From Aureliella helgolandensis (GTDB taxonomy: Bacteria; Planctomycetota; Planctomycetia; Pirellulales; Pirellulaceae), in the NCBI RefSeq assembly GCF_007752135.1, contig NZ_CP036298.1, positions 8,052,501-8,116,500 on the forward strand: a stretch of 64,000 nucleotides of DNA, in the 5' to 3' direction. This document shows positions 1,429-60,129 of the stretch, piece after piece. The notes under the pieces are model-generated. The model was not told the DNA's origin. It did no database searches and saw only the letters and a program-made list of their open reading frames with translations. The first letter of the stretch is position 1. Each line of letters starts with the position of its first letter. The position numbers and the translations under genes were made by a program.

Positions 1429-2535
1429 ATGGACCACACTCTCATTCCTCCAGCCTTCCACCCCGGGGAGTCACCAGTGACGAAGGAAGCCGAAGTCAAC
1501 ACCCAATCCACCACCTCCGATCCCGATTCCGGCGCGCCAGAAGCCGCCGTCAAGGATCGGTCAGCCCGCTATTGGATTGGATTTGATCTGGGGGGCACCA
1601 AGATGCAATGCACCCTCTTCGACGAATCGCTCAAGCAAATCGGCTCCCGTCGCCGGCGGACCAAAACGGAACTGGGCGTCGAGGGAGGTCTCGATCGGAT
1701 TGCCGCTACGATCTCAAAAGTTCTGGACGATGCCGATGTGCTTCCCTCGCAATTGGCCGGAATTGGAATTGGCTGCCCTGGTCCCGTAGAGTGGAGCAAG
1801 GGGGTCGTTCGCGTAGCCGTCAATCTTGGGTGGAAAAACGTAGCCGTCGGCAAATACTTGGAAGGCAAGTTCAATTGCTCAGTAACGGTTCTGAATGACG
1901 TCGATGCGGGCGTCTACGGTGAGTATGCTGCTGGGGCTGCCAAGGGAGCGCGGACCACCGTCGGAATTTTCCCCGGCACGGGTATCGGTGGCGGATGCGT
2001 TTATGACGGCCAAATCCTGCGTGGTAAACACCTCACTTGCATGGAAATTGGTCATACAAAAATCAATGGCTCGCCACGCCCCGGTGGAACCGGCATGGCT
2101 GGCACCCTGGAAACGGAAGCCAGTCGCCTAGCAGTAGCTGGCGAACTTGCCAAGCTCGCTTACCGAGGCGAAGCCCCCAACCTGTTTAAAACGGCCGGTA
2201 CCGATCTTGGCGCAATCCGTAGTAAAACGATCGCGGAATCCATTGCTGCCGGAGACAAAAATGTCGAGCGTGTCGTGGAAGACGCCTGCGAGATGATCGG
2301 CTACGCCGTGGCCAACACCGTCCTCATGATCTGCCCCGATGTCATCGTTCTGGGTGGCGGTCTGGTCGAAGCCATGCCCGATCGATTCGTCAAAGCGATC
2401 TCCAAGTACGCGAAGAAAAACGTGTTCGAATGCTATCGCGATGAGTTCGAAGTCCGCGCTGCCAAACTTGGCGATGACGCCGGCACCGTCGGCGCCGCCG
2501 CCTGGGCCCAAAAGGTAAGACAACAATCCTCCTAA
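1429..2535 (+). CDS. ROK family protein (sugar kinase-like)
   Basis: ROK (repressor, ORF, kinase) fold protein, 368 residues from this ATG. The N-terminal phosphate-binding motif DLGGTK lies at residues 53-58, the catalytic base is probably the Asp of LNDVDAG near 157, and the second glycine motif GTGIGGG is near 184. These fit an ATP-dependent hexose kinase such as a glucokinase. No N-terminal DNA-binding domain is present, so it is an enzyme rather than a repressor. The Cys-rich zinc site usual in ROK proteins after the GHT motif is missing: here the stretch reads EIGHTKINGSPRPGGTGMAG. The ATG has no ribosome site; an in-frame GTG at 1477 has GGGGAG about 8 bp upstream and is a good alternative start (352 residues). 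Substrate unknown. Confidence 0.87.
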   Translation: MDHTLIPPAFHPGESPVTKEAEVNTQSTTSDPDSGAPEAAVKDRSARYWIGFDLGGTKMQCTLFDESLKQIGSRRRRTKTELGVEGGLDRIAATISKVLDDADVLPSQLAGIGIGCPGPVEWSKGVVRVAVNLGWKNVAVGKYLEGKFNCSVTVLNDVDAGVYGEYAAGAAKGARTTVGIFPGTGIGGGCVYDGQILRGKHLTCMEIGHTKINGSPRPGGTGMAGTLETEASRLAVAGELAKLAYRGEAPNLFKTAGTDLGAIRSKTIAESIAAGDKNVERVVEDACEMIGYAVANTVLMICPDVIVLGGGLVEAMPDRFVKAISKYAKKNVFECYRDEFEVRAAKLGDDAGTVGAAAWAQKVRQQSS

Positions 2536-2538
2536 CCA

Positions 2539-2657
2539 GGCTTGTTGAAATTGGAACCCGCCGCCTGACGGCATGTCGATTTCATCGCGATTTCAGTTTT
2601 ACTGAGTAGGTAGCTTTCCTAATTGGCCGGTTGCGGCAACCACCTGTCCTTGCTCAC
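2539..2657 (+). repeat. Degenerate copy of dispersed 115-bp element
   Basis: Immediately after the ROK gene. It contains GGCTTGTTGAAATTGGAACC, then CCGCCGCCTGACGG, and ends in CCTTGCTCACCGGG, where the next copy begins. The order of motifs matches the intact copy at 2658-2773, but the inner part has diverged. Confidence 0.55.
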
Positions 2658-2773
2658 CGGGCTGTTGAAATAGTTACCCGCCGCGTCAGCAAGGATAAGT
2701 GGTCGCCACTGCAGGTCGATTAGGGGTACTTCCTGCACGTTAGAACTCAAGGCGCTATTAAATCAACAGCCCG
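2658..2773 (+). repeat. Intact dispersed MITE-like element, 116 bp with 11-bp terminal inverted repeats
   Basis: Begins with CGGGCTGTTGA (2658-2668) and ends with its exact reverse complement TCAACAGCCCG (2763-2773). Just inside the left end is the core AACCCGCCGCGTCAGCAAGG-like motif found throughout the window. No protein is encoded. Size and terminal repeats resemble a miniature inverted-repeat element or a REP-type sequence. A second copy with the same ends is interrupted by the insertion sequence at 11.8-13.4 kb. Confidence 0.75.
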
Positions 2774-2815
2774 TCACGCTGCGGGTTACTATTTCAACAA
2801 TCCCGTGAGCAAGGC
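2774..2815 (+). repeat. Half copy of dispersed element
   Basis: TCACGCTGCGGGTTACTATT followed by TCAACAATCCCGTGAGCAAGG. It carries the core and one imperfect end, directly abutting the intact element, so this gap is a small cluster of repeat copies between convergent genes. Confidence 0.6.
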
Positions 2816-2830
2816 AAAAGCGACTACTGC

Positions 2831-4735
2831 TCACGCCTCTTTCCAGTCACGAATTGTTTTGACTACCGGCTCCAATTCGTCTTTGGCAACGTCAGGTGAA
2901 TCGAGCAACGCCTCGATCACTCGCTTGGTAATCGCAGGCCTGTCCGGAGACAACAGAGGGGCAAAAGGCCCCGTCAGTTGCCCTTGCCCCATGCGTTCCA
3001 AATACTGGATTGCTACCTCCTCCGACAGCTCTGGACTCGGGGAAGCTGCTGCCGAGAGGGATGCAAGCACTACCTTACAGTGGCCGCGATGTTCCCAATT
3101 GGGCGTAGCAGACTCTGCCTCTGGATCGCTAAAGTACTGAACATCGAGGCTTTCGAGCAGGGCCCTCAGCTTGGGAACACTCGCGACTACGACGTCCGGT
3201 GCAACCTCACCAAGCTTCAAGAAATAGTCACCAAACTTGTAGTTGCCGAAGGCAGTCAAGTCATTGAGCGCATCGATCAGAACCGGCACGACTTGCTCAG
3301 CATACTGGGGCCGTCGATGCACGATCTCCGCCAAGCCACACCAGGCCGCACCACGCGGTCGGAAGCCTTGTCCTTCGCCCTTACAAATAGGAAGAAGCTT
3401 TCTGACGGCGAGCGCGTCGGATGCCTCGCTCGGCATCCATTCCTCTCGGGAATAGAACGGTCTCGCGCCACCATAGCCAAACGCACACACGGTAGTTTCT
3501 TGAACAACGTAGGACTCATGCAGCAACAAACGCTCTAGCTCCGCTTCGACTTGCGGCAAGCCCTCTCCCCAATGAACCAACAAAAAGGGTGCAACATAGA
3601 ACAGCCTCTGGGCACTCCCCCTCTTGTCACTCGGATAGGGTGTAGAGTCCAGCGCCGCCAATAGTTTTGGTACGTCACTGGCAGTGAACCTCTCTCTGAC
3701 ATATTGGACCAACGACTGCGTGATGACACCCGACGACCGTTCTTCCAACAGTACTTCCAGGAATTCCTCAGCACTCTCGATCTCTATCCCTATCTGGCTC
3801 CCGGCCGCAGGGCTGCCGGAAGTCGAGTAAGTGAAAACCAACGGAAGCACCACTTTGGTTGATTTAAAATCGATCACGGATGTCAGTGCGTCGCGTAATC
3901 GCGCCGCCTGCTCGGAATTGAGATCAGCCTCCGCAACCACCGCCTCAGCAACGCCGGCTAGCGTGAGCCCCCAATCCTGATCACTGTCCCACAAGGTGTA
4001 ACCTTTGCGAAAATTGCCTCGGCTCTTAAAGTCCTTACTGCCGGTTAGCAATTCATAAGCCCTCTTCCCATTTCCCTCCATGACTACGACATCCACGCTG
4101 GCCGGTTGCATGCGGCGCAACGCCTGAACACTTTCAGTAGTGATGCAAGTATCCTCCACCCACAACTTCTCGAGCGACGTTAATGGCTCCAATTCCTGGA
4201 GACCTTCGGAAGTGATTTCGGTATTGGTAAGATCCAAATTGACGAGACTGCTCATCGTCGCCACGTGCGGCATACTCGCGTCGGTGATCGATGTGTCATT
4301 CAGCGACAGATTGACGATACCTAGCGGAAGGCAGGCAATATGCGCGTCGGTGATATTAGATCGGGCCAGTGATAAAACGCTCAGTTTCGGAAATCGGTCA
4401 AGCAGCGCGCAGTCGTTGGGCTGCAAACTCGCCCCATCCAACGTCAAACGTTCGATTCCTGTGCACTGACTTAGCGCCTCTCGCAACTCAGCATTGATAA
4501 CCAAGTCTCTCAGAGCCACACTCACTACGGAAGAAGGGTCCGTTGGACTGAACAGCACGACGCCCCCACCTCTCTGGATTGCATCAACAAAACCTTGCGA
4601 CAGAGTACTGGGAGGTGCTGCCCGTCGCTGGAAATAATCCCCCGGCAGGTACATAACGACTACCATCAGACCAATGGCAACCAACATCGCGATGAAGAAA
4701 TGTAGGCGTTGGCGAACCGACAGGGAAGCGTTCAT
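2831..4735 (-). CDS. Membrane-anchored leucine-rich-repeat protein of unknown function
   Basis: About 634 residues from the ATG at 4735; the open frame continues to a TTG at 4780, but the ATG gives a clean N-terminus (MNASLSVRQRLHFFIAML) with a transmembrane segment at roughly residues 12-33, so the rest should lie outside the cytoplasm. Residues about 80-220 hold leucine-rich repeats (IERLTLDGASL, LSVLSLARSNIT, IVNLSLNDTSIT, LVNLDLTNTEIT, LEKLWVEDTCIT), a spacing typical of planctomycete LRR proteins. The C-terminal 400 residues are helical and may form HEAT-like repeats; no catalytic motif is seen. LRRs suggest binding to another protein. Gene stands alone between repeats and a 320-bp gap. 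Confidence 0.8.
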   Translation of the reverse strand: MNASLSVRQRLHFFIAMLVAIGLMVVVMYLPGDYFQRRAAPPSTLSQGFVDAIQRGGGVVLFSPTDPSSVVSVALRDLVINAELREALSQCTGIERLTLDGASLQPNDCALLDRFPKLSVLSLARSNITDAHIACLPLGIVNLSLNDTSITDASMPHVATMSSLVNLDLTNTEITSEGLQELEPLTSLEKLWVEDTCITTESVQALRRMQPASVDVVVMEGNGKRAYELLTGSKDFKSRGNFRKGYTLWDSDQDWGLTLAGVAEAVVAEADLNSEQAARLRDALTSVIDFKSTKVVLPLVFTYSTSGSPAAGSQIGIEIESAEEFLEVLLEERSSGVITQSLVQYVRERFTASDVPKLLAALDSTPYPSDKRGSAQRLFYVAPFLLVHWGEGLPQVEAELERLLLHESYVVQETTVCAFGYGGARPFYSREEWMPSEASDALAVRKLLPICKGEGQGFRPRGAAWCGLAEIVHRRPQYAEQVVPVLIDALNDLTAFGNYKFGDYFLKLGEVAPDVVVASVPKLRALLESLDVQYFSDPEAESATPNWEHRGHCKVVLASLSAAASPSPELSEEVAIQYLERMGQGQLTGPFAPLLSPDRPAITKRVIEALLDSPDVAKDELEPVVKTIRDWKEA

Positions 4736-11735: not shown

Positions 11736-11828
11736 CGGGCTGTTGATTTAATCGCAATTTGAATTTTAGCGCGGAGGTCGCGTCCCTAATTGACTTGTAG
11801 CGGAGGTTATCTTTCCTTGCTCACGCGG

Positions 11829-13362
11829 CTAGGCTGTGAAGTTTTTTCACCAACGGACTCTTTTGGTATTCCAACCACGAAATTTTTTCGAATTGGCGGC
11901 TGAAAGTCTTACTGGGTCGGATTGTTGGCCAGCAAGTTAGCTCGTGTCCATCATGCTCATCTCTTCGAGTTGTGTTATTTCTCAACCAAGCGGTTGCCTT
12001 GCAACTGCTTAGATTGCCAAGGCCCCCAGGTTTACCATGCGTGTGAAGTTAAAGGCCACGGCATGCCATAGCGCTACCGCTTTGACCTTCACCAGTCCTC
12101 GAACTTTGAATTGCCGAAGGTTCCGATTGCGGCAGTCCGCATTGGGAAACTCGGCAACCGACGGGCGCGTCTTGTAAAGCTCTTTGTATTCCTCTTTGGC
12201 CATTCTCGCGCGAAACGCTGTGTATTCGTCGCTTTCGCCAGGTTGCTGCGCGTGAGGATCTTTGCCTTTGCTTTCCAATACCGATCCACGGGGGATCGTG
12301 GAGACGACTTCGGTCCCTTTAGACTCTACGGTCTTAACATCGCCCTTGGTTGCGTAAGCGGAATCGACCAATTGCGTCTTTGGTGTCTTGTCGTAAGTTG
12401 AGCACACTTTCTCGTGCATTGGTGCCATTTGGCCACTGTCAGTTCCCGAGTTGATAACATCGACAGCGACTATTACTCGCGAGTCAGCATCGGTTGCGAA
12501 CTGGACGTTGAAGGCCGGATCGAAGCCACCATTGGCCATCTTCATATTACGGGCGTCAGGGTCCGTAGTGCTCACGCGAGTCTTTTCGCCGTCACCTTTT
12601 CTCCGAGACTCGCGCTGCTTACTAAGCTCCTCAAACTGTCGCAAAGCCTCATCTAATCGCTCTTGACGCTCACGCGATGCTCGTTCGACTGCCGCTTGGC
12701 GACGTGCGTCTCCATCGGAACGATCGCATTCGTTCTCGGATTCTTTCTTCAATCTATCTACGTGAGCCTGAGCCTGCTGCTGCAATGACTCAAGCGTCGG
12801 CTTGCGGCGAAACGAACTACTGCCTGCACTAGCCCGAACGCGCATTCCGTCTTGGGCAATGGTCTCCAGGGGCACCAGACCTTGGGCGACCAACGAGGCA
12901 ACCGTGTCAACGAGCGTCTTCTCCAAGAATGCTCCGTTCTCCACTCGAAAGTCGCTCAACGTGTGATAATTGACCGTGACATTTCCGAGCGTCCATAAAT
13001 AGGCTATGTCCGTCTCGCATCGGCGACCAAGTTCTCGGGCTGTGCCGATGCCATCCAAGGTTGCCAGAAGCCACAGTGAAACCAGTATCTCCGGCGCAAT
13101 ACTATTGCGGCCAACGGTGCTCTTGGTGACAACGATCTTTTCATACAGAGGTTCTAGGTCCAACGTTTTGACAAACGACCAGACAATGCGAGCACGATGG
13201 TCGCGCGGAAGCATATCTTCAAGTGAAAGCATGTGCATTTCCACTTGAATACGATGGGGGCGGGAAACACGAGCAAGCTGCGATGGTTTTTGAGTATTCA
13301 TGCTATAGTTGTAGCGCCCAAAATTAATTTGCAAACCACTTGGCTAAAAATTCACAGCCTAG
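11829..13362 (-). mobile_element. IS1182-like insertion sequence, apparently intact
   Basis: About 1534 bp with terminal inverted repeats CTAGGCTGTGAA at the left end (11829-11840) and its reverse complement TTCACAGCCTAG at the right end (13351-13362), plus partial similarity inwards (T-rich run then ACC/GCC). It carries one full-length transposase. The flanks join into the uninterrupted repeat core if 1-3 bases are removed, so the target duplication is very short; the exact edge is ambiguous because both ends contain the palindrome CTAG. Confidence 0.85.
12009..13301 (-). CDS. IS1182 family transposase
   Basis: 430 residues from the ATG at 13301 (an 11-codon upstream extension is open but unlikely). 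The N-terminal DUF772-like domain is typical (HMLSLEDMLPRDHRARIVW and REL GRRCETDIAYLW region). DDE catalytic positions are visible: Asp in IAQDGMRVRASAG, Asp in QLVDSAYATKGD, and Glu near the C-terminal block EFPNADCRNRN with the family pattern FKVRGLVKVKAVALWHAVAF. A charged coiled region (about 175-250) lies between. There is no frameshift or internal stop, so the element may be mobile. Confidence 0.92.
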   Translation of the reverse strand: MNTQKPSQLARVSRPHRIQVEMHMLSLEDMLPRDHRARIVWSFVKTLDLEPLYEKIVVTKSTVGRNSIAPEILVSLWLLATLDGIGTARELGRRCETDIAYLWTLGNVTVNYHTLSDFRVENGAFLEKTLVDTVASLVAQGLVPLETIAQDGMRVRASAGSSSFRRKPTLESLQQQAQAHVDRLKKESENECDRSDGDARRQAAVERASRERQERLDEALRQFEELSKQRESRRKGDGEKTRVSTTDPDARNMKMANGGFDPAFNVQFATDADSRVIVAVDVINSGTDSGQMAPMHEKVCSTYDKTPKTQLVDSAYATKGDVKTVESKGTEVVSTIPRGSVLESKGKDPHAQQPGESDEYTAFRARMAKEEYKELYKTRPSVAEFPNADCRNRNLRQFKVRGLVKVKAVALWHAVAFNFTRMVNLGALAI

Positions 13363-13386
13363 GCGGGTTACTATTTCAACAGCCCG

Positions 13387-56058: not shown

Positions 56059-56853
56059 ATGAAAAGTAACCCGATCAAAAAGAAATTGTCGCGTGGTCAG
56101 CCCACGCTTGGCACGTGGCTCTCTCTTGGCAACTTGCACGCTGCCCGCGTACTAGCCCGAAGTGGTTTCGATTGGATTACACTTGACATCGAACACAGCC
56201 CCTTTGACTGGCGCGAAATTGCATCGGTGGTCGCCAGCATTGCGGACGCCGACTGCGTCCCCCTGCTCCGCGTCCCTGACAACTCACACACCATGATCAA
56301 ATGGGCCCTCGACGCTGGTGCCTACGGCGTAATCGTCCCCATGATCGATACGGTGGAACAAGCTCAAGCCGCGATATCAGCAGCTAAATACCCGCCACGA
56401 GGAACGCGGAGTGCAGGCGGGGGAATGCACAATCTAAATTTCAGCTGCCCGACCGAAGAGTACTATCGCCGTGCCAATGACGAAGTCGTAGTCATCCTCC
56501 AAACAGAAAGCCCTCAGGGAGTGGCGAACGCCGAGCAGATCTACGCCGTGCCCGGATGTGACGCAGTATTCATTGGCCCCAACGATCTGCGGTTCCAAAT
56601 GCGATCCCCCACCGGCGACTTCCCCACGGCGGAAGAGCACGAGCAGATGATCCAGCGAGTCGTCGAGGCGGGACGCGCCACCAGCACCCCGGTCGGCATT
56701 CACGTCATGACTCCCGAGCAAGCCAATGCACGCATCGCCGAAGGAATGCAATTCATCGCCATCTCAAGCGATCTGGGCATGCTGGCCAACCGAGCTGCAG
56801 AAATCGTCAAAACCTTGGGTATCCAATCCGACGATGATATTGCTCGCTACTAA
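56059..56853 (+). CDS. HpcH/HpaI aldolase family protein
   Basis: 264 residues, the family's usual size. The TIM-barrel class II pyruvate aldolases cleave or form 2-keto-4-hydroxy acids. Signatures: LGTWLSLGNLHAARVLARSG, FDWITLDIEHSPFDW (catalytic His/Asp region), PLLRVPDNSHTMIKWALDAG (Arg), VVILQTESPQGVANAEQI (metal Glu) and VFIGPNDLRFQM (metal Asp). Active-site residues appear complete. It follows the aminotransferase by 8 bp and could process the keto acid that the aminotransferase yields. A large tandem repeat array starts about 80 bp downstream. True substrate unknown. Confidence 0.93.
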   Translation: MKSNPIKKKLSRGQPTLGTWLSLGNLHAARVLARSGFDWITLDIEHSPFDWREIASVVASIADADCVPLLRVPDNSHTMIKWALDAGAYGVIVPMIDTVEQAQAAISAAKYPPRGTRSAGGGMHNLNFSCPTEEYYRRANDEVVVILQTESPQGVANAEQIYAVPGCDAVFIGPNDLRFQMRSPTGDFPTAEEHEQMIQRVVEAGRATSTPVGIHVMTPEQANARIAEGMQFIAISSDLGMLANRAAEIVKTLGIQSDDDIARY

Positions 56854-56936
56854 TCCCAGTCGAGCAGACAATACCGCCCTCGCCAGCAACACACTCGACT
56901 GCCCCAAGTGATCAACTGTAGCCACTCCTCCCATCG

Positions 56937-58925
56937 CAACCCGCCGCGTCGGCAAGAAGAGTGGACAGGCAAGTGGCCAAGCATGCGAGGAACCACGCGG
57001 TTCTAGCCGTCAACTGATGGACCAACAACCATCCTCGCTCACGCATCGGGTTACGATTTTTACAATCGACAATCACGCTAGGCACCAGCATGCTATGCTC
57101 CCATTGCAACCCGCTGCGTCGGCAAGAAGAGTAGACTGACAAGCGGCCAAGCATGCGAGGAACTACACGGGCTCTAGCCGTCAACTGATGGACCAACAAC
57201 CTTCCTCGCTCACGCGTCGGGTTACGATTTTTACGATCGACAATCACGCTAGGCACCAGCATGCTATCCTCCCATTGCAACCCGCCGCGTCAGCAAGGAG
57301 AGTGGACAGGCAAGTGGCCAAGCATGCGAGGAACTACACGGTTCTAGCCGTCAACTGCTGGACCAACAACCATCCTCGCTCACGCGTCGGGTTACGATTT
57401 TTACAATCGACAATCACGCTAGGCACCAGTATGCTATCCTCCCATTGCAACCCGCCGCGTCAGCAAGGAGAGTGGACAGGCAAGTGGCCAAGCATGCGAG
57501 GAACTACACGGGCTCTAGCCGTCAACTGATGGACCAACAACCATCCTCGCTCACGCGTCGGGTTACGATTTTTACAATCGACAATCACGCTAGGCACCAG
57601 TATGCTATCTTCCCATTGCAACCCGCCGCGTCAGCAAGGAGAGTGGACTGACAAGCGGCCAAGCATGCGAGGAACTACACGGGCTCTAGCCGTCAACTGC
57701 TGGACCAACAACCATCCTCGCTCACGCATCGGGTTACGATTTTTACAATCGACAATCACGCTAGGCACCAGTATGCTATCCTCCCATTGCAACCCGCCGC
57801 GTCAGCAAGGAGAGTGGACTGACAAGCGGCCAAGCATGCGAGGAACTACACGGGCTCTAGCCGTCAACTGATGAACCAGCAACCATCCTCGCTCACGCGT
57901 CGGGTTACGATTTTTACAATCGACAATCACGCTAAGCACCAGCATGCTATCCTTCCATTGCAACCCGCTGCGTCAGCAAGGAGAGTGGACTGACAAGCGG
58001 CCAAGCATGCGAGGAACTACACGGGTTCTAGCCGTCAGCTGATGAACCAGCAACCATCCTCGCTCACGCGTCGGGTTACGATTTTTACGATCGACAATCA
58101 CGCTAGGCACCAGCATGCTATCCTCCCATCGCAACCCGCTGCGTCAGCAAGGAGAGTGGACTGACAAGCGGCCAAGCATGCGAGGAACTACACGGGCTCT
58201 AGCCGTCAACTGATGAACCAGCAACCGTCCTCGCTCACGCATCGGGTTGCGATTTTTACAATCGACAATCACGCTAGGCACCAGCATGCTATCCTCCCAT
58301 TACAACCCGCTGCGTCGGCAAGAAGAGTAGACTGACAAGCGGCCAAGCATGCGAGGAACTACACGGGCTCTAGCCGTCAACTGATGGACCATCAACCATC
58401 CTCGCTCACGCGTCGGGTTACGATTTTTACAATCGACAATCACGCTAAGCACCAGCATGCTATCCTCCCATTGCAACCCGCCGCGTCAGCAAGGAGAGTG
58501 GACTGACAAGCGGCCAAGCATGCGAGGAACTACACGGGCTCTAGCCGTCAACTGATGGACCAACAACCATCCTCGCTCACGCGTCGGGTTACGATTTTTA
58601 CAATCGACAATCACGCTAGGCACCAGCATGCTATCCTCCCATTGCAACCCGCCGCGTCAGCAAGGAGAGTAGACAAGCAAGTGGCCAAGCATGCGAGGAA
58701 CTACACGGGCTCTAGCCGTCAACTGATGAACCAGCAACCATCCTCGCTCACGCGTCGGGTTACGATTTTTACAATCGACAATCACGCTAGGCACCAGCAT
58801 GCTATCCTCCCATTGCAACCCGCTGCGTCGGCAAGAAGAGTAGACTAACAAGCGGCCAAGCATGCGAGGAACTACACGGGCTCTAGCCGTCAACGGATGA
58901 ACCAGCAACCATCCTCGCTGACAAG
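56937..58925. repeat. Tandem array of nearly twelve 171-bp units
   Basis: Units begin with CAACCCGCYGCGTC at 56937, 57107, 57278, 57448, 57619, 57790, 57961, 58132, 58303, 58474, 58645 and 58816; spacing is 171 bp (170 twice) and the last unit is cut short. Each unit holds the core AACCCGCCGCGTCAGCAAGG and, about 110 bp on, its inverted partner CCTCGCTCACGCGTCGGGTT, then CGATTTTTACAATCG, which can form a hairpin. These are the motifs of the dispersed element in this genome. Units differ at a few positions that alternate along the array (GACAGGCAAGTGG versus GACTGACAAGCGG). It fills the space between two convergent genes. Frames of 57 codons per unit exist but are broken by stops and 170-bp units, so it is not a gene. 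Confidence 0.95.
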
Positions 58926-58939
58926 CTAGCGAGCGAACC

Positions 58940-59878
58940 TTAGATATTCTTACCAGAGCCCTTGGTCAGAGCCATAAAGGCCGATTCAAGGTTCGTCGCC
59001 TTGGCGCCAAAGTGCTTGAACCCAAATCCGCCGTTGACTAGGTCCAAGGAGAGCGGGCTGTAGTCCAGCACCCCTTCTTTCAAGGTAACTTCAAACATTC
59101 CGCGAGCCTTGTCCAGTTTATCGACGAGGGCGTGGGACTCCAGAAACTTGGCTGCTTCCGCCTGACGCTCAACCGGTGCGATCTCAATTTCCAACACGGT
59201 TTGCGGTCGCACCGTTTTGATCAATTCCTCAATCGTCCCGTTGAACCCCATCTCTCCGCGATTGATGATCCCCACCTTGTTACAGATGTCTGCCAATTCC
59301 GGCAGAATGTGGCTGCTCACAATAATTGTCTTACCGGTCTGCCCCAACCGCCGAAGCAGATTCCGCATCTCAATTCTGGCGCGAGGGTCAAGCCCACTCA
59401 GCGGTTCATCCAACAGCAATACTTGAGGATCATGCAATAGCACACGGGCGAGCCCCAATCGTTGCGTCTGCCCTCGGGAGAGGGTATTGGCATAAGCATC
59501 TCGCTTGAAATCCAAATCGACGACATCCAACATTTCATCACAGCGCTGGCGGCGGGCGGCACCTTGAATCCGATACGCGGCCGCAAAGAACTCCAAATAC
59601 TCGATGACTGTCATGTCATCGTAAACGCCAAAGAAATCGGGCATGTAGCCCACCAACCGTCGAATTTCTTTAGGATCGGTGTAGATCGAATTCCCGCACA
59701 CGTAGGCCTCGCCGTATGTGGGAGTTAGCAGAGTGGCGACGATGCGCATTGTCGTCGTTTTACCAGCTCCGTTGGGACCAATAAAGCCGAACAAGTCTCC
59801 CTCTTCAAGCTCCAGATTGATGCCGCGAATCGCGTACATATCACCATACTTCTTGGTCAAATTGCTGGTCTTGATCAC
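58940..59878 (-). CDS. ABC transporter ATP-binding protein
   Basis: About 312 residues from a GTG at 59878. The frame is open to 59998, but that extension runs through a copy of the dispersed repeat (its reading RQPVTRWVITETSRW is repeat-derived), so the later start is preferred. Walker A is FIGPNGAGKTTTMRIV, the Q-loop region follows GYMPDFFGVYDDMT, the signature is LSRGQTQRLGLARVL (LSRGQ instead of LSGGQ), Walker B is VLLLDEPLSGLDP, and the switch His is in VSSHILPEL. The type belongs to CcmA/ABC-2 exporters (Na+, antibiotic or gliding). No permease gene is adjacent, although the large membrane protein upstream could be a partner. It is convergent with the array and the aldolase gene. Confidence 0.93.
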   Translation of the reverse strand: MIKTSNLTKKYGDMYAIRGINLELEEGDLFGFIGPNGAGKTTTMRIVATLLTPTYGEAYVCGNSIYTDPKEIRRLVGYMPDFFGVYDDMTVIEYLEFFAAAYRIQGAARRQRCDEMLDVVDLDFKRDAYANTLSRGQTQRLGLARVLLHDPQVLLLDEPLSGLDPRARIEMRNLLRRLGQTGKTIIVSSHILPELADICNKVGIINRGEMGFNGTIEELIKTVRPQTVLEIEIAPVERQAEAAKFLESHALVDKLDKARGMFEVTLKEGVLDYSPLSLDLVNGGFGFKHFGAKATNLESAFMALTKGSGKNI

Positions 59879-59950
59879 AGGAGAAACCTTGTCGCAATGG
59901 ATCGTGTTTGGGGAATGCAATTCAAATAGCCGCCAGCGGCTTGTCTCAGT

Positions 59951-59981
59951 AATAACCCACCGCGTGACGGGCTGTCGAAAT
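59951..59981 (+). repeat. Degenerate copy of dispersed element upstream of ABC gene
   Basis: AATAACCCACCGCGTGACGG then GCTGTCGAAAT. It is nearly the same as the copy at about 11636-11665, and it lies in the leader of the ABC ATPase gene. Confidence 0.6.
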
Positions 59982-60129
59982 ATTAGACCTTCGCGCAAGC
60001 TAGCCAGACTTGGTCGCTAATCAAAGGTGATTCGGAGGGGGATAAACATGCTCTCAATTCAACCAGCCGTCAGCCGCCGGATTACTTCTGTTCCGCTAAA
60101 ACCATAAAAGTGCTTCCATCGACAGCCCA

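What the first reader, a model, noticed from the sequence alone, without database searches (positions are those of the whole stretch)
56937..58925. Large 171-bp tandem array built from the genome's dispersed repeat core
Nearly twelve units with an almost exact 171-bp period fill the space between two convergent genes. Each unit holds the core AACCCGCCGCGTCAGCAAGG and its inverted partner CCTCGCTCACGCGTCGGGTT, both also seen in scattered intergenic elements. Variants (GACAGGCAAGTGG or GACTGACAAGCGG; GGACCAACAACC or GAACCAGCAACC) are shuffled among units, as expected from unequal crossing-over or gene conversion. It may be a protein-binding array, a transcription or chromosome-organisation site, or an expanded mobile palindrome.
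Basis: seen in the sequence. Interest (0 to 1): 0.75.

Follow-up and report, generated by a model that had tools for sequence, protein, structure and literature searches.

The report
Satellite array grown from mobile repeats
A planctomycete chromosome carries a dozen head-to-tail copies of a small dispersed repeat wedged between two genes that abut in two related species, and the repeat's short core is also a favoured landing site of two kinds of mobile element.

Summary
The array is real: TRF gives 56926-58919, period 171 bp, 11.7 copies, 95% matches. It is twelve copies of a ~120-bp element ("B") bounded by inverted copies of a 20-bp core (AACCCGNNGCGTNAGCNAGG), with eleven ~52-bp spacers; the last copy is cut inside its inverted core. 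In two same-genus relatives the flanking genes abut (6 bp apart, or stops overlapping), so ~2.1 kb was gained here. B recurs in other arrays of this genome with other spacers. The core has 279 exact copies here against 0 for the reversed control and occurs in seven families of the order. It is an insertion hot spot: 17 of 17 IS1182-family copies sit at one point of a core (15) or core-like site (2), and 25 of 30 copies of a 116-bp MITE-like element abut half-cores. Best explanation: a MITE-derived minisatellite, amplified by recombination between neighbouring repeats and shuffled by unequal crossing-over or gene conversion. No host function is shown. The two arms agree at only 40 of 176 variable core positions, which argues for sequence recognition rather than a kept hairpin.

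The parts
56926..58923 (.). tandem array: 12 B elements and 11 spacers, period 171 bp
   Evidence: TRF 56926-58919; right end extended to the half inverted core CCTCGCTGAC read
56938..57052 (+). B copy 1 (core to inverted core); most diverged complete copy
57108..57223 (+). B copy 2
57279..57393 (+). B copy 3
57449..57564 (+). B copy 4
57620..57735 (+). B copy 5
57791..57906 (+). B copy 6
57962..58077 (+). B copy 7
58133..58248 (+). B copy 8
58304..58419 (+). B copy 9
58475..58590 (+). B copy 10; identical to the consensus unit
58646..58761 (+). B copy 11
58817..58923 (+). B copy 12, cut inside its inverted core
56059..56853 (+). left neighbour: HpcH/HpaI aldolase family gene
   Evidence: PF03328 E 3.7e-35
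58940..59998 (-). right neighbour: ABC transporter ATP-binding gene (ORF as listed with a TTG start; true start not determined)
   Evidence: ORF; PF00005 E 1.2e-26 on 58943-59902
11830..13361 (-). IS1182-family element inserted in the core of an A element; one of 17 copies in the genome
   Evidence: NF033551 E 2.8e-98, 329.9 bits against cut-off 270; ends and length 1532 bp
2658..2773 (+). A element (116 bp, ends CGGGCTGTTGA) carrying a core with one mismatch at 2675

Best explanation
The array is a minisatellite grown from a small dispersed repeat. The repeated element (B, about 120 bp) has inverted ends carrying a 20-bp core and looks like a non-autonomous, MITE-like mobile repeat. B came to lie in the junction of two convergent genes that abut in relatives. 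Two neighbouring direct copies plus the DNA between them were then multiplied by unequal recombination or replication slippage, and later unequal crossing-over or gene conversion shuffled variants among units. Shown: the array and its anatomy, B at other loci with different spacers, the empty junction in two relatives, and the core as insertion target of two other elements. Inferred: that B transposed, and that ordinary recombination rather than a dedicated enzyme multiplied it. The array probably has no host function of its own.
For: Anatomy and shuffled variants. Empty junction in G005 and G013. B at 8.127-8.129 Mb and in arrays at 5.77 and 5.80 Mb, with periods 215, 182 and 178, so spacers differ. 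Core inverted ends kept at 1368 of 1408 fixed positions in 44 B copies. In 4 of 19 array rows (L016, L020, L021, L028) both ends lie in or near a core and the DNA beyond the last core reads on as a different element, as recombination between two resident repeats predicts.
Against: No transposase for B and no target duplication of B was found. Six of 19 array rows (L017, L019, L031, L033, L043, L054) have ends away from a core. 18 of 22 array rows in a 400-kb sample lack the core, so the core is not needed to make arrays. The 171-bp unit was not found in the other 14 genomes of the genus searched (only core-sized pieces, in 5 of 14), so intermediate stages are not seen.
Confidence: 0.72

Rival explanations
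1. The array is a selected protein-binding platform: a host protein reads the 16 fixed core positions and the array concentrates it, for chromosome organisation or to insulate the two convergent genes.
For: The 16 fixed positions are kept while both arms drift at the variable ones; the core is shared across families.
Against: The site is empty in two relatives; many other arrays without the core exist; 9 of 14 same-genus genomes have no match at E 0.001 to the unit at all; no binding protein is known.
Confidence: 0.1
2. An enzyme acting at the core (a transposase or site-specific recombinase) multiplies units directly, for instance by rolling-circle or core-to-core joining.
For: Several arrays run from core to core; two elements cut inside the core at fixed points; this array ends at the same half-core CCTNGCTNAC that A insertions leave.
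Against: Arrays also end elsewhere, and arrays without a core exist; core-to-core ends are equally expected from homologous recombination. None of 7 Y1-type transposase genes has a core within about 1.5 kb.
Confidence: 0.1
3. The unit is a structured RNA or a bidirectional terminator array between convergent genes.
For: Inverted arms; RNA fold z -2.34, 5 of 200 shuffles as good; position between convergent genes.
Against: DNA fold z -0.95, 24 of 200 shuffles as good; no terminator-like site (0 found, 2.5 in shuffles); no Rfam match; arms do not stay complementary at variable positions.
Confidence: 0.06
4. The copy number, or the array itself, is an assembly artefact.
For: No reads were available; tandem arrays are error-prone in assembly.
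Against: Units differ at 36 columns and the genome is one contig; the exact number could still be off.
Confidence: 0.02

Closest known systems
REP sequences as insertion targets (ISPsy8, ISPpu9, ISPpu10, ISPa11, ISRm19, ISRm22; PMC1525189: abstract, Results section and passages read)
   Same: A dispersed intergenic repeat in which every copy of an IS sits at one point; ISPsy8 with a 3-bp direct repeat.
   Different: Families named there are IS3, IS110, IS4, IS256 and IS5; here the IS is IS1182-family. The core here is not a palindrome of its own, and a MITE-like element uses the same core at a second point.
REP / REPIN / BIME elements (PMC3733652: passages read; REPIN and BIME features partly recalled)
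   Same: Short intergenic repeats, often in inverted pairs and clusters, with alternating orientation in arrays.
   Different: The 20-bp core has no stem beyond GC..GC around GTNA (read from sequence) and no GTAG or CGTC foot as described there; no Y1 transposase beside it.
IS1272, an IS1182-family element that targets inverted repeats (PMC5678879: passages read)
   Same: Same IS family by name; choice of repeat structures as targets.
   Different: IS1272 replaces its target and lacks a target duplication; here the core is split and a 3-bp duplication remains in 15 of 17.
Minisatellite within a MITE of Porphyromonas gingivalis (PMC4596501: search listing and start of abstract only)
   Same: Tandem repetition linked to a MITE.
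   Different: There the minisatellite is inside the MITE; here whole elements plus spacer are the repeat unit.

Membership tests
Minisatellite / tandem array | Head-to-tail units of constant period and high identity | tested here: met
   171 bp, 11.7 copies, 95% matches
MITE (element B) | Small, non-coding, terminal inverted repeats, dispersed copies | tested here: met
   44 copies parsed from 7 loci, arms agree at 665 of 704 fixed positions; most of these copies lie in arrays
MITE (element B) | Target-site duplication and a parent transposase | tested here: inconclusive
   No free-standing B with clean flanks was found; no transposase with core ends was found
MITE (element A, 116 bp) | Terminal inverted repeats and target duplication | tested here: met
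   Ends CGGGCTGTTGA; exact 4-bp duplication in 12 of 30, within one mismatch in 19 of 30
MITE (element A, 116 bp) | Parent autonomous element | not tested
   No search for a full-length element with A ends was made; the IS1182 element has other ends
REP / REPIN | Short palindromic hairpin with GTAG or CGTC foot | tested here: not met
   Core read directly; only GC..GC pairs around GTNA; features as given in PMC3733652
REP / REPIN | Associated RAYT (Y1) transposase gene flanked by the repeat | tested here: not met
   7 Y1_Tnp matches (6 over the cut-off), no core with up to 3 mismatches in their 3.2-3.3 kb loci
IS1182 family (element at 11830-13361) | Transposase over the family cut-off | tested here: met
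   NF033551 329.9 bits, cut-off 270
Coding repeat | Open frame through the units | tested here: not met
   Longest ORF over the array is 122 aa; two units have a 1-bp deletion

The most novel reading that the evidence does not exclude
The 20-bp core is a recognition sequence shared widely among planctomycetes and read by a protein (a transposase or a domesticated one) through 16 fixed positions. Otherwise different small elements carry it at their ends or inside. Because it is at once part of the elements and the landing pad of others (A at GTNA, the IS1182-type element at GCN), insertions bring new landing pads, and the clusters that result seed satellite arrays: a self-renewing target system.
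Probability: 0.25. Interest if true: 0.7.

Novelty: new variant of a known kind. Interest (0 to 1): 0.45.

Why it matters
It turns an odd array into a traceable history: an empty junction in relatives, a dispersed element, its amplification, and the element's core as a landing pad. A one-contig genome with many such arrays of different unit length lets one test how bacterial satellites are born. The 17 of 17 IS1182-type insertions offer a transposase with strong target choice for study.

Tried and rejected
Coding repeat: rejected. Rfam RNA: no match at gathering score over the window or at E up to 1 over 56850-58950. Terminator: none found; three of the four promoter-like sites are the same unit position repeated. 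RAYT-driven REP: not met. A kept hairpin: arms disagree at the variable positions. The core as sole seed of arrays: weakened by 18 of 22 array rows without it; some rows are the same array at another period.

The IS1182 element in 28 other genomes (15 picked because they hold several core copies): 0 of 28 at E 1e-30; the tool warns that an empty answer without a positive control shows nothing. The A element in 39 relatives: only G013 matched, over 25-30 bp around the core (its tally of 2 of 40 includes the own genome).

Papers: no description of this repeat turned up in searches, which saw only an open-licence library and listed the best rows. One search searched four strings of the core as text; the 5 papers listed of 7 have unrelated titles. 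PMC6749651 (one passage) has Rhodopirellula baltica in a table of satellites; nothing on its repeats was in that passage.

Full report
What is there. The window lies at 8,052,501-8,116,500 of a single-contig 8.44-Mb genome. TRF reports one large array, 56926-58919, period 171, 11.7 copies, 95% matches. Each unit has a core (AACCCG..GCGT.AGC.AGG, allowing two mismatches) and, 95-96 bp on, an inverted core; two of eleven intervals are 170 bp. I call core-to-inverted-core the B element. The twelfth copy stops inside its inverted core. Thirty-six of 171 alignment columns vary, in linked blocks shuffled among units; the end units differ most from consensus (12 and 14 differences, the latter counting columns in and beyond its cut core, against 0-7 in the others). 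A coding repeat is excluded by indels, frames and lack of family hits.

The site was empty. In two same-genus genomes the orthologues of both flanking genes are adjacent and convergent: G005 (67% and 84% identical) with 6 bp between the stop codons, G013 (66% and 80%) with overlapping stops. Here 2,086 bp separate them. In three other relatives with an aldolase orthologue (G002, G010, G003; 56-61%) no ABC orthologue was found in the stretches held, so they say nothing about the junction. None of the five search loci (L087-L091) holds a core within two mismatches; the further stretches L128-L132 were not scanned for it.

B is dispersed. A search with one unit gave 82 places in the own genome (40 of 153 first-look candidates scored). 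Besides the array itself, one copy at 8.127 Mb matches over 157 bases at 83%, and arrays at 5.77 and 5.80 Mb match over about 120 bases at 70-78%, on the opposite strand. In that orientation five B copies from four loci align end to end, while periods of 215, 182 and 178 show that spacers differ. At 8.127-8.129 Mb two B copies stand with a spacer like this array's between them; an IS1182-type element splits the second copy's core and an A element its inverted core.

The core is genome-wide and found beyond this genome. The pattern has 279 exact hits here and none for the reversed control. Among 39 relatives 19 have it, three of them with one hit only; with the own genome this covers seven families of the order. 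In an even draw of 392 genomes of the phylum 7 have it, the own included and three with a single hit. In other genomes the sequence around the core differs: inverted pairs about 53 bp apart in G025, direct arrays of roughly 25-60 bp spacing in G022, and of 25-45 or about 200-240 bp in G039.

The core is a landing pad. The A element is 116 bp with ends CGGGCTGTTGA. Of 30 copies examined (of 40 scored, 293 candidates), 25 have a half-core on at least one side and 14 on both, against 1.45% and none of about 20,000 random positions in the fetched, core-rich loci; 12 of 30 have an exact 4-bp duplication. Where the target is a core, the duplicated bases are its GTNA. A 1532-bp IS1182-family element is present in 17 copies over the family cut-off. 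All 17 sit at the same point, AACCC[GCN]GCGT: 15 in a recognisable core (in four of these, L279, L281, L286 and L289, the core is itself cut just beyond by an A element), two in partial core-like sites (L277, L283); 15 of 17 have an exact 3-bp duplication (core-likeness judged by eye, no control run for it). One copy is in this window at 11830-13361.

Sequence, not stem. In 44 B copies from seven loci (the truncated twelfth window copy was not parsed), the two arms agree at 665 of 704 fixed core positions but at only 40 of 176 variable ones. A hairpin kept by selection should keep the variable positions complementary as well. Folding gives z -2.34 as RNA and -0.95 as DNA. Copies within an array are not independent, so this is a pointer, not a proof.

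How arrays form. In 19 array rows inspected, L016, L020, L021 and L028 end in or near a core with a different element beyond; the right ends of L022 and L023 are cut by an A element; L017, L019, L031, L033, L043 and L054 end elsewhere. These 19 were chosen because they hold the core. A 400-kb even sample gave 22 array rows of period 25 or more, 4 with the core (3 arrays, one already known), so the genome grows arrays from several kinds of DNA. Recombination between resident repeats is the simplest account; an enzyme acting at the core is not excluded.

Comparison. REP-targeting ISs (PMC1525189) are the nearest precedent: all copies of an IS in REPs at one point, ISPsy8 with a 3-bp repeat. IS1182 is not among the five families named there. 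IS1272, an IS1182-family member, targets inverted repeats but replaces them (PMC5678879). Filing the core as a REP fails on palindromy and on the Y1 transposase test.

Verdict. A real, lineage-gained, MITE-derived minisatellite in a genome rich in such arrays: ordinary in likely mechanism, unusual in its core, which is both part of the elements and an insertion target. On checking, no change of odds was needed except a lower confidence than first drafted for an enzyme-driven origin, which stays a rival at 0.1.

Noticed in passing
11736-13386: An A element is split at its core by the IS1182-family element (11830-13361): nested insertion in this very window.
   Followed up: yes
L017 about 1832-3640 (own genome about 1.1623-1.1641 Mb): A 229-bp core array is interrupted by another transposase-bearing element (501-aa frame, one of 9 copies with weak IS1182 similarity), with ends TGTCCGTCCGGAAATTG / CAATTTCCGGACAGACA beside TAGCTAG.
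   Followed up: no
L318 11531-12161 (own genome about 5.3115 Mb): A 48-bp tandem repeat with about 13 copies and no core, 94% identical: a different repeat family also forms arrays.
   Followed up: no
L323 7448-19342 (own genome about 7.307-7.319 Mb): Four array rows (periods 224, 292, 241, 168) within 12 kb, one with the core: arrays seem clustered.
   Followed up: no
G012, G022 and G039 contig ends (e.g. L107, L143, L139): Core hits often lie within 200 bp of contig ends in draft relatives, suggesting that these repeats break assemblies and are undercounted there.
   Followed up: no
L016-L055, 176 cores of the own genome: Core positions 7 and 17 vary together (C with A in 150, A with G in 23 of 176): two core subtypes; the window B element has one of each.
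   Followed up: partly
56912-57280 (-), 57188-57529 (+), 58555-58848 (+): Chance ORFs of 97-122 aa over the array could be annotated as hypothetical proteins.
   Followed up: partly
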